Below are positions 3,932 through 28,748 of a DNA stretch of 35,469 nt, piece after piece. The notes below the pieces were generated by a model that was not told where the DNA came from, searched no databases, and worked only from the letters and a program-made list of their open reading frames with translations. The stretch comes from a delta proteobacterium MLS_D (lineage in GTDB: Bacteria > Desulfobacterota > Syntrophia > Syntrophales > UBA2210): NCBI GenBank assembly GCA_002030015.1, contig LQBH01000057.1, forward strand, positions 1 through 35,469. Reading direction: 5' to 3'. How positions within the stretch are numbered: position 1 is the stretch's first letter; every line of letters starts with the position of its first letter. A program made the translations under genes and the position numbers.

Positions 3932-4007
3932 CACTCATCCGTGCAGACGAAAGCGATTCCGTGCGGACGGCCATACGGCTCAATCACGATCGCGGCGGCA
4001 TGCATTT

Positions 4008-4199
4008 TTACCTGCCGCGTCTTCTCGCCGCTTTTACCATCCGCCTGCGGGCCTCAAGGGCCTTCCTCTTTTTCTTGACCGAAGGCTTTTCATAGGCCCT
4101 TCTCAACTTGAGTTCCTTGAAGAATCCGTTTTTCGATAGCTTGTTCTTCAGAACCTTCAAAGCCTTTTCAACATCATTGTCGATAACTTTAACTTCCAA
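4008..4199 (-). CDS. rpsU: 30S ribosomal protein S21
   Basis: S21 sits on the 30S platform near the anti-Shine-Dalgarno region and helps initiation. The 63-residue product begins EVKVIDNDVEKALKVLK after the initiator, contains the FFKELKLRRAYEKPS core and ends in a run of Arg and Lys, all typical of the family. The start is a TTG at 4199, chosen because AGGAGG lies about 7 nt upstream and the S21 family begins exactly there. The frame extends upstream to 4277, but that extension is not S21-like. A non-ATG start on a ribosomal-protein gene and the terminator-like leader ahead of it suggest controlled expression. Confidence 0.93.
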   Translation of the reverse strand: MEVKVIDNDVEKALKVLKNKLSKNGFFKELKLRRAYEKPSVKKKRKALEARRRMVKAARRRGR

Positions 4200-4275
4200 C
4201 GATACTCCTCCTTCGGTAGTCGTCATGAAATGCCGGCATCCGGCCGTTACCGGACCGGGAACGTAAAAAGGACAC

Positions 4276-4329
4276 AAAAAAGGGGCAGAACGACGCCTGC
4301 AACATGTACGCGCCGCTTGATCCGCCCCT
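4276..4329 (-). terminator. Terminator-like hairpin in the rpsU leader
   Basis: Read on the minus strand, AGGGGC (4329-4324) pairs with GCCCCT (4286-4281), and the latter runs straight into six T (4281-4276). The roughly 37 nt between the arms contain a second pairing, AGCGGCG with CGTCGTT, allowing G-U pairs, which would extend the stem. It lies between the mini-ORF and rpsU, about 75 nt before the TTG start, so it would prevent read-through into rpsU unless alternative folding occurs. Confidence 0.45.
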
Positions 4330-4355
4330 GTCCAGCTCTTTTTATATCACGCTCC

Positions 4356-4430
4356 TTACTGCGAAGACAGCGCGTCGAAACGCTGTTTCTTCTTCCGCTT
4401 CCGCCGCAGCGGAATACGCGGATAGAACAT
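4356..4430 (-). CDS. 24-residue basic mini-ORF in the rpsU leader
   Basis: An ATG at 4430 opens a 24-codon frame ending in TAA at 4356. The peptide starts MFYPRIP, has a central LRRKRKKKQRF block of almost only Arg and Lys, and ends DALSSQ. GAGGA lies about 10 nt upstream of the ATG, slightly far but plausible. It sits between a promoter-like element and a terminator-like hairpin and upstream of rpsU, so it could be an attenuator leader peptide or a small basic ribosome-associated protein. I recognise no family. The frame is short enough to occur by chance. Confidence 0.3.
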   Translation of the reverse strand: MFYPRIPLRRKRKKKQRFDALSSQ

Positions 4431-4460
4431 AAAAATGGTATCCTCTTTGCGGAAGAGCCT

Positions 4461-4489
4461 TTTATACATTATTTTTTTTTGCGACACAA
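4461..4489 (-). promoter_or_regulatory. Putative promoter for the mini-ORF and rpsU
   Basis: On the minus strand TTGTGT (4489-4484) and TATAAA (4466-4461) are spaced by 17 bp. The -10 matches consensus at 5/6 positions and the -35 at 3/6. The spacer is an A-rich tract. The element overlaps an AT-rich inverted repeat and lies directly downstream of lipM. Confidence 0.4.
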
Positions 4490-4500
4490 TAAAAAATAAT
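4468..4500. repeat. AT-rich 10-bp perfect inverted repeat
   Basis: ATTATTTTTT (4468-4477) is mirrored by AAAAAATAAT (4491-4500) across a 13-nt loop. It begins 10 bp downstream of the lipM stop and covers the spacer of the putative rpsU promoter. It has no GC content in the stem, so it is a poor terminator and could instead be an operator or simply A-tract DNA. Confidence 0.6.
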
Positions 4501-4510
4501 GGTACCCGCC

Positions 4511-5332
4511 TTATAAACGCCCCCGTTCATTCCATCGGCGGTTCCCGTATTTTTCAGTAATCAACCGCTCCGCAAGCGCCCGCTCCCGCCCGGTCAAATC
4601 GCCTTTCAGCAACCTGATGTTCAGCAGTTCTTCGAATCCGCTGCCGAGGTACGGGACAAGACGTTCGGCGGTGACCGGGACCGAAGTCTCACGCGAGACA
4701 CATGTTACGGCCCCCGCGAGGCGACGGACGGCTTCTTCCTCATCACGCCCGTCTTTCCCCATGATCTGCAGACTTATCACCGGATCGAAATCTATCAGGA
4801 CCGAACCGTGCTGCAGAAAACAATCCCGTCCCCGGACCTGGGCGCTGCCGCATATTTTAGCCCCCTTCACCAGTAATTCATTGCGGAAAGGTACGGCGAA
4901 ACACCCGGCTTCCTCAAAACACCGTCCGGGAGCACGTCCTTCCTCGACAAGTTCCGCGCTGATACCTGCCTTTCCCAAACCCTTGATCAGGCACCGACCG
5001 ATAACACGGTACGTGCCGAGTATGTCGGCGGAAAAAGGGAACCGGTGCTGTGACGAGGCCAGCGAATAGGTCAGATCCGTTGAATGATAGACCGCCTTGC
5101 CACCGGTAGGACGCCGAACGATATCGATTCCCCGCTCTTCACAGAAAGCACGGTTCACGTCCTCTTCCAGGTCCTGGGAATATCCGACTGTCACCGTCGG
5201 CCGAATCCACCCGTACAATCGAAGGGTCGGCTCACCGCCCCGGGTTGCGGTTTCGCGAAATATCGCCTCATCCACGGCCATATTTTCGGCGCCGCTGAGC
5301 CGCTGAAAGGAAAGCAACCTCCAGGTTTCCAC
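4511..5332 (-). CDS. lipM: LipM-type octanoyltransferase / lipoate-protein ligase A family
   Basis: The 273-residue product belongs to the BPL/LPL catalytic fold that attaches octanoyl or lipoyl groups to lipoyl domains. AENMAVDEA at about residues 15-23 and RRPTGGKAVYH at about 73-83 are the acyl-binding signatures, and GAKICGSAQ with K159 and FLQHGSVL follow. A cysteine in AGCF (C144) stands where the catalytic Cys of Bacillus LipM octanoyltransferase lies, about 15 residues before the conserved Lys, which favours LipM over an ATP-dependent LplA ligase. The start ATG at 5332 is 6 bp from the gcvH stop, so the enzyme is co-transcribed with a likely substrate, GcvH. The choice between transferase and ligase rests on that Cys and the context and is not certain. 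Confidence 0.82.
   Translation of the reverse strand: METWRLLSFQRLSGAENMAVDEAIFRETATRGGEPTLRLYGWIRPTVTVGYSQDLEEDVNRAFCEERGIDIVRRPTGGKAVYHSTDLTYSLASSQHRFPFSADILGTYRVIGRCLIKGLGKAGISAELVEEGRAPGRCFEEAGCFAVPFRNELLVKGAKICGSAQVRGRDCFLQHGSVLIDFDPVISLQIMGKDGRDEEEAVRRLAGAVTCVSRETSVPVTAERLVPYLGSGFEELLNIRLLKGDLTGRERALAERLITEKYGNRRWNERGRL

Positions 5333-28671: not shown

Positions 28672-28748
<77 letters not shown>

What the first reader, a model, noticed from the sequence alone, without database searches (positions are those of the whole stretch)
4200..4500. Attenuator-like leader with a basic 24-codon mini-ORF ahead of rpsU
Within 300 bp the minus strand carries, in order, a promoter-like pair (TTGTGT, 17 bp, TATAAA) embedded in an AT-rich 10-bp inverted repeat, a mini-ORF whose peptide is dominated by LRRKRKKKQR, a terminator-like hairpin with six T, and then rpsU on a TTG start. 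This is the layout of a leader-peptide attenuator: slow translation of an Arg/Lys-rich leader could alter folding and let polymerase reach the gene for a very Arg/Lys-rich ribosomal protein. Alternatively the mini-ORF could be a small basic ribosomal protein. The elements are seen; the regulation is inferred.
Basis: partly seen in the sequence, partly recalled or inferred. Interest (0 to 1): 0.55.

Follow-up and report, generated by a model that had tools for sequence, protein, structure and literature searches.

The report
Conserved attenuator-like leader before rpsU
Ahead of the gene for ribosomal protein bS21, one group of syntrophic bacteria keeps a hidden promoter, a short stretch able to pair with the ribosome's mRNA-binding tail, and a transcription-stop hairpin, which may be a new way for ribosomes to control one of their own parts; the 'mini-gene' seen there is only the rotted end of a neighbouring gene.

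Summary
Promoter, T-tailed hairpin and TTG-started rpsU are backed by comparison across the window's class (probably Syntrophia/Syntrophales). The 24-codon basic mini-ORF is not a gene: it is the frameshifted remnant of the 3' end of hisC, intact upstream of rpsU in many relatives. Two things around it are constrained. (1) A sigma-70-like promoter inside hisC coding sequence (GC3 8/308 at seven codons versus 2109/3637 elsewhere), found as a relic in 21 of 21 tested loci without adjacent hisC, this window included. (2) An ~87-nt RNA element, AAGGAG-N-GUGRU + ~20 nt + covarying 13-bp hairpin + T-run, with no Rfam match. A pattern scan of 84,980 species gave 90 stretches; of the 80 listed, rpsU is the next recognised gene in 74, carA in 3, none in 3. 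The motif can pair with the 16S anti-Shine-Dalgarno around a one-base bulge, with no excess of start codons after it. Best reading: a transcription attenuator of rpsU whose readthrough may be set by 30S subunits docking on the leader. The layout is well supported; termination, trigger and sign are inferred.

The parts
4459..4497 (-). Promoter relic of the hisC-embedded promoter: T-tract, TTGTGT (4489-4484), 17 bp, TATAAA (4466-4461); start of transcription expected near 4455
   Evidence: Profile from 44 hisC genes scores 14.3 here, 0 of 200 shuffles as high; seven codons in intact hisC are AT-fixed at third positions. Start site inferred.
4356..4500 (-). Decayed 3' end of hisC; contains the 24-codon 'mini-ORF' 4430-4356 and the hisC stop
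   Evidence: MAFFT alignment with intact hisC of L004, L007, L014 and decayed L006; frames compared
4274..4360 (-). Conserved leader RNA element (model R1)
   Evidence: Covariance model hit, 69.6 bits, E 2.5e-10 in the whole own genome, single copy; this sequence was one of the 49 used to build the model
4346..4357 (-). AAGGAG-C-GTGAT: site complementary to the 16S anti-Shine-Dalgarno with one bulged base; no start codon follows
   Evidence: Conservation pattern in 70 sequences; predicted pairing -14.2 kcal/mol here
4281..4329 (-). Bulged terminator-like hairpin
   Evidence: Fold of the window piece; covariation on 70 sequences
4276..4281 (-). T-run after the hairpin
   Evidence: Sequence; conserved in alignment A1
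4205..4213 (-). AAGGAGGAG, Shine-Dalgarno sequence of rpsU
   Evidence: Sequence
4008..4199 (-). rpsU (bS21), TTG start
   Evidence: Pfam PF01165 E 1.1e-19; TTG at this place in 89 of 90 loci, CTG in 1
4511..5332 (-). lplA-like lipoate/biotin ligase, now the gene upstream of the leader
   Evidence: Pfam PF21948 E 8.3e-37

Best explanation
A leader RNA specific to this class that attenuates transcription of rpsU (or of carA-carB-rpsU where carAB stands between). A promoter originally embedded in hisC starts a transcript that runs through former or actual hisC 3' sequence, then makes an AAGGAG-N-GUGRU site and a strong bulged hairpin with a U-run where polymerase can stop, so rpsU is made by readthrough. 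The most likely signal is a 30S subunit: the site can pair with the 16S 3' tail over about 11-13 bp around one bulged base and lacks a start codon. By usual geometry (recalled) a docked 30S would reach to about the foot of the hairpin (spacing mostly 18-24 nt), so the leader could sense subunits whose tail is free, a property tied to bS21. Shown by comparison: promoter, element, covarying hairpin, attachment to rpsU rather than to hisC. Inferred: that it terminates, that readthrough is regulated, that the ligand is the 30S, and the sign.
For: Promoter: GC3 8/308 at seven hisC codons versus 2109/3637 elsewhere (codons chosen); absent in 14 control hisC homologues; relic in 21 of 21 tested loci without adjacent hisC. 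Element: found in 78 of 100 related genomes, 75 of them once; 95.8% of cells paired, 7 of 13 pairs with double changes, covariation 0.287 versus 0.194 shuffled (0 of 500) and at most 0.132 slid. Next recognised gene rpsU in 74 and carA in 3 of 80 pattern hits while the upstream gene varies (hisC 56, lplA 17, carB 2, gcvH 1, other 4). T-run to rpsU 27-333 nt in 56 loci; hairpins -23.8 kcal/mol on average in 70. In 70 sequences, bases facing C or A of the 16S tail are invariant but for one base in one sequence; bases facing U vary as A to G 42 times and A to T 7 times.
Against: No transcript data. Only 1 of 100 genomes yielded the 16S tail, canonical; own tail masked. Pairing energy is not distinctive: 395 overlapping windows of this 35-kb window reach -13 kcal/mol. 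The 30S would abut rather than cover the hairpin, so how docking would change termination is unclear. In E. coli bS21 helps the tail pair (PMC10931766, passages), the reverse of Flavobacterium (PMC9976891, passages), so the sign is open. No conserved antiterminator. L018, L020 and L023 have TTGACA just after the T-run, a possible second promoter. Genomes without the element exist (22 of 100), several with their own TTGACA promoter before rpsU (L025, L031, L033-L037, L040).
Confidence: 0.4

Rival explanations
1. Classical autogenous r-protein leader: bS21 (or another r-protein) itself binds the hairpin and/or the AAGGAG-N-GUGRU strand and steers termination; the match to the 16S tail is coincidence.
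For: Conserved structured RNA directly before an r-protein gene; the lower stem is nearly invariant in sequence, as a protein site would be.
Against: No rRNA mimicry found in the readable part of the own 16S (3' end missing). The substitution pattern fits pairing with the tail. bS21 binding cannot be tested here.
Confidence: 0.25
2. Ordinary terminator of the upstream gcvH-lplA-hisC transcript, with rpsU transcribed from its own promoter downstream.
For: Strong hairpin plus T-run just after the hisC stop; L018, L020, L023 have TTGACA after the T-run, and L019, which lost the element, has a short hairpin plus TTGACA.
Against: The element persists where hisC is gone and also precedes carA; a conserved promoter lies upstream of the hairpin and survives hisC loss; no excess of promoter-like sites between hairpin and rpsU in 61 loci (one, L011, at p 0.04); spaces as short as 27 nt; AAGGAG-N-GUGRU has no role in a terminator.
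Confidence: 0.15
3. A small RNA gene: the promoter and terminator make an ~180-250-nt RNA (about 180 nt in the window) that acts elsewhere, for example by occupying 16S tails; rpsU is only a neighbour.
For: Own promoter and terminator in order; a strong 16S-complementary stretch exposed before the hairpin.
Against: Tied to rpsU or carAB-rpsU in 77 of 80 hits, with a second copy before rpsU where carB intervenes in 2 genomes. Synteny alone could explain part of this.
Confidence: 0.15
4. One reading: a leader peptide rich in Arg/Lys drives attenuation, or the ORF is a small basic ribosomal protein.
For: A 24-codon ORF with LRRKRKKKQR lies between promoter and hairpin in this genome.
Against: It is hisC remnant and its frame is broken in L002 and L003; the peptide matches only itself in the own genome; the 43-residue form has no Pfam family.
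Confidence: 0.03

Closest known systems
bS21 autoregulation in Flavobacterium johnsoniae (PMC9976891; abstract and passages seen)
   Same: rpsU; an extended Shine-Dalgarno-type sequence pairing with the 16S tail; possible sensing of ribosomes by their bS21 state.
   Different: There the extended SD is the ribosome-binding site of rpsU and control is translational. Here the site lies in the leader, before a terminator-like hairpin, without a start codon, and with a bulged base; rpsU has its own SD.
Ribosomal-protein leaders (r-leaders), survey PMC7247131 (abstract and passages seen)
   Same: Conserved covarying RNA in the 5' region of an r-protein gene; conditional intrinsic terminators are a known mode.
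   Different: Main text of that survey has no occurrence of 'S21' or 'rpsU'; no rRNA mimicry detected here.
S10 operon attenuation by uL4 (PMC10931766, passage)
   Same: Rho-independent termination in the leader of an r-protein operon.
   Different: Ligand there is a free r-protein with NusA; here no ligand is known and a 16S-pairing site is conserved.
Leader-peptide attenuators of the trp/his type (recalled)
   Same: Promoter, leader, terminator-like hairpin, gene.
   Different: No conserved leader peptide and no conserved antiterminator pairing.

Membership tests
Leader-peptide attenuator (trp/his type) | Conserved translated leader peptide with regulatory codons | tested here: not met
   24-codon frame broken in L002/L003; region is hisC 3' end in L004, L007, L014
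Leader-peptide attenuator (trp/his type) | Intrinsic terminator in the leader | tested here: met
   Hairpin plus T-run conserved and covarying; termination itself not tested
Leader-peptide attenuator (trp/his type) | Mutually exclusive antiterminator fold | tested here: not met
   Words complementary to the arms in the 108 nt upstream are at shuffled level in 80 leaders; a word test, so weak structures could be missed
Ribosomal-protein leader (r-leader) | Conserved structured RNA before an r-protein gene | tested here: met
   rpsU next recognised gene in 74 of 80 pattern hits; covariation
Ribosomal-protein leader (r-leader) | Binding of the r-protein, often by rRNA mimicry | tested here: inconclusive
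   No significant likeness to the readable own 16S; best p 0.097; 16S 3' end missing; binding not testable
Flavobacterium-type bS21 autoregulation | Extended SD at the rpsU start codon | tested here: not met
   The conserved site lies in the leader; rpsU's own SD is weaker on the median, -9.5 versus -15.1 kcal/mol, although 10 of 61 loci have an rpsU SD of -14.3 or stronger
Flavobacterium-type bS21 autoregulation | bS21 hides the 16S tail | not testable with these tools
   Needs structure or biochemistry of this ribosome
Any Rfam 15 family | Match at the gathering score | tested here: not met
   Window: one tRNA only; 4000-4550 at E <= 1: only SprD, 15.8 bits against gathering 100; 10 relatives at E <= 1: none
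Terminator of the upstream operon | Follows the upstream gene whatever lies downstream | tested here: not met
   Upstream gene varies (hisC, lplA, carB, gcvH) while rpsU or carA follows in 77 of 80

The most novel reading that the evidence does not exclude
A transcription attenuator that uses the 30S subunit itself as its ligand: a start-codon-less, bulged extended Shine-Dalgarno site in the leader captures 30S subunits by their free 16S tail and sets whether polymerase reads through to the gene for bS21, the protein next to that tail. The unit arose around a promoter embedded in hisC and outlived hisC.
Probability: 0.25. Interest if true: 0.85.

Novelty: new variant of a known kind. Interest (0 to 1): 0.6.

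Why it matters
A review says that rpsU regulation in E. coli remains unknown (PMC10931766, passages). Here is a conserved, testable rpsU leader with a candidate sensor made of the ribosome's own mRNA-binding tail, matching no Rfam family. It is also a clean case of regulation overlapping a coding sequence: the promoter fixed synonymous sites in hisC and then survived as the gene around it decayed, leaving a decoy 'mini-gene'.

Tried and rejected
Leader peptide or small basic protein: rejected by the frame comparison. Rfam: nothing relevant. Terminator of hisC as the main reading: set back because the element stays with rpsU or carAB-rpsU and survives hisC loss. Conserved antiterminator or anti-SD words in the leader: at shuffled level; boxA-like word 2 of 80 against 0.1 expected, too few to use. 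rRNA mimicry: the 5' arm superficially resembles 16S GGTAGTCCACGCC, but 10 of 15 matches equals the shuffled mean; the complement gives 11 of 15, p 0.097. Start codon after the motif: 21 of 70 have ATG/GTG/TTG in positions 16-30, 20 of them at 24-26 and 1 at 28, but shuffles give 25.6; mostly TTG, 6 of 21 open for 20 or more residues. Promoter between hairpin and rpsU: no excess, but that scan's rule would miss the TTGACA seen in L018, L020 and L023. Spread outside the order: 2 of 16 phylum hits, weak (G158 E 7.2e-5, G112 E 0.00243), on other contigs than rpsU; taken as chance. Pairing energy by itself: not discriminating.

Caveats on counts. Upstream DNA was read for 90 of the 93 genomes with an rpsU match (G067, G087, G092 not fetched); 57 of those 90 fit the first regex. 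R1 was built from loci picked by that regex, A2 is fitted to R1, and the scan pattern demands GGAG-N-GTGRT, so invariance of the motif is partly built in; neighbour genes are not. recognises only seven query genes. 10 of 90 stretches were not listed or analysed. Rows dropped as near-duplicates: 8 of 57 before A1, 6 of 50 before codon counts. L022 failed the spacing regex and one spacing of 8 is a regex artefact. The seven codons were chosen. Control hisC were found in 14 of 30 loci and are GC-richer overall. In one search, 10 of 21 relics score below the lowest intact hisC (26.1; the hisC were the training set); lowest L194 8.1, L190 11.2; L246, L205, L252 and L189 were not tested. Searches used mononucleotide shuffles. 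G029, G016 and G070 among the 78 hits are weak (E 0.0145-0.0528).

Full report
What is there. On the minus strand the window reads gcvH, an lplA-like ligase, the finding's region, rpsU, a LOG-type (lysine-decarboxylase-like) gene and holA. Promoter-like pair, ORF, hairpin and TTG-started rpsU are at the stated places. By consensus scanning alone neither promoter nor terminator exceeds chance, so the case rests on comparison.

The mini-ORF. rpsU matched in 93 of 100 related genomes; I read its upstream DNA in 90 of them, the own genome included. In 50 loci a hisC-like gene end was recognised just before rpsU. The window's 'promoter plus mini-ORF' stretch aligns with the 3' end of that hisC: RKKKQRFDALSSQ* corresponds to a frameshifted EEENSAFIDAL...Q*. 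In L002 and L003, of the same genus, indels put the ATG in another frame; L006 has lplA followed by a less decayed remnant; L004 has an intact hisC. The Arg/Lys run is thus an accident of decay. One point for the ORF: its last codons remain open in L002/L003 from an ATG inside the -10 box, but a transcript from this promoter would start after it.

The promoter. In 44 non-redundant hisC genes upstream of rpsU, seven codons around NF(I/V)(L/F)FSC..D.(D/N).(V/I)Y use almost only A/T third bases: 8 of 308 G/C against 2109 of 3637 in the rest compared (per codon). Codon 13 is GTA, ATA or TTA in 44 of 44. The bases spell TTTTT(A/G)GTTG(C/T)-N17-TATA. Fourteen hisC homologues in other contexts do not show it (codon 3 GC3 0.79, codon 13 0.64), though they are GC-richer overall. 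In 21 of 21 tested loci without adjacent hisC (18 with lplA upstream, 2 with carB, and the window, also lplA) a profile of this promoter finds a relic 31-140 nt before the element, none of 200 shuffles of each region scoring as high. Scores run from 8.1 to 51.3, and 10 of the 21 lie below the lowest intact hisC, as expected for relics.

The element. Between that promoter and rpsU lies a conserved RNA: AAGGAG-N-GUGRU, then mostly 18-24 nt, then RGGGURG / UACGGC - loop - GCCGUA / CUGCCCU and a T-run (49 sequences). On 70 distinct sequences 95.8% of cells pair, 7 of 13 pairs have changes on both sides (2 of 500 shuffles reach 7), and the covariation score is 0.287 against 0.194 shuffled (0 of 500) and at most 0.132 slid; that alignment was fitted to the structure. 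The covariance model finds it in 78 of 100 relatives at E <= 0.1 (59 of 70 good-quality genomes), once in 75. In 395 genomes sampled from the phylum 16 match at E <= 0.01, 14 of them in this order. A DNA pattern of it in 84,980 species gives 90 stretches; most of the 80 listed titles are Smithella, Smithellaceae, Syntrophus, Syntrophaceae, Syntrophales/Syntrophobacterales or unnamed Deltaproteobacteria. The name Syntrophia/Syntrophales for the window itself is inferred from these titles.

Whom it serves. In those 80 loci, among seven query genes, the next one on the same strand is rpsU in 74, carA in 3, none in 3 (two at a locus end, one unrelated, L189). The gene before, within 400 nt, is hisC in 56, lplA in 17, carB in 2, gcvH in 1, none in 4, one of which has lplA at 409 nt. 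In L124, L125, L127, L128 and L129 the element heads carA-carB-rpsU; in G069 and G093, with carB between hisC and rpsU, there are two copies, one before carB and one before rpsU. So it belongs to the rpsU unit, not to hisC. The T-run ends 27-333 nt before the rpsU start in 56 measured loci, 8 of them within 50 nt. No excess of promoter-like sites is seen there in 61 loci, with the exception of TTGACA in L018, L020 and L023, which that scan's rule misses. rpsU must then be read through the hairpin at least in the species with short spaces.

The pairing site. In 70 sequences the bases that would face C or A of the 16S tail are invariant save one base in one sequence; those that would face U change 42 times A to G, which keeps a G-U pair, and 7 times A to T, which does not; the bulged base is C 38, A 22, T 10, never G. 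Predicted pairing averages -16.2 kcal/mol against -6.6 for shuffles, and the site is stronger on the median than rpsU's own SD (-15.1 against -9.5). But strong pairing is common in this window (395 overlapping pieces at -13 or below), so the pattern of change, not the energy, is the evidence. The tail could be read in 1 of 100 relatives, where it is canonical. Start triplets after the motif are no more frequent than in shuffles (21 of 70 against 25.6).

Mechanism and doubt. Promoter - leader - terminator-like hairpin - gene, conserved as a unit, argues for attenuation. No conserved alternative fold is visible, so a binding partner is likelier than a riboswitch-type rearrangement. Because the motif mirrors the 16S tail and the gene encodes bS21, I take a 30S subunit as the likeliest partner; bS21 binding the hairpin is the main rival. 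Flavobacterium uses bS21-less ribosomes on an extended SD of rpsU (PMC9976891, passages), while in E. coli bS21 helps the tail pair (PMC10931766, passages); the sign of any feedback here is open. A docked 30S would abut, not cover, the hairpin, so how it would act on termination is not explained.

Literature. Seven full-text searches listed no paper on an rpsU leader or attenuator of this kind that I recognised from titles and abstracts; the r-leader survey PMC7247131 has no 'S21' or 'rpsU' in its main text. Most subscription papers are not covered.

Noticed in passing
window 4199; start of rpsU in L001-L091: The rpsU start codon is TTG in 89 of 90 loci of the class and CTG in one; in 17 rpsU loci elsewhere in the phylum most starts look like ATG by eye. 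A fixed weak start codon may be part of bS21 control.
   Followed up: partly
L012, upstream of rpsU: In G016 an insert of roughly 150 nt splits the loop of the leader hairpin while both stem arms remain.
   Followed up: no
L017, between hairpin and rpsU: An insert flanked by a 20-bp perfect inverted repeat (GGGTCTGTCATGAAATAAGT and its complement), MITE-like, lies between the hairpin and rpsU.
   Followed up: no
L122 (G069) and L123 (G093): The promoter-plus-element unit is present twice, before carB and before rpsU, suggesting that it duplicates or moves as a module.
   Followed up: partly
L025, L031, L033-L037, L040: Loci without the element have a TTGACA promoter directly before rpsU instead.
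   Followed up: partly
L243: A contig titled 'Paludibacter sp.' carries lplA - element - rpsU of this kind, probably wrongly binned.
   Followed up: no
window 28674-28748: tRNA-Gly (anticodon ccc), the only RNA gene found in the window.
   Followed up: no
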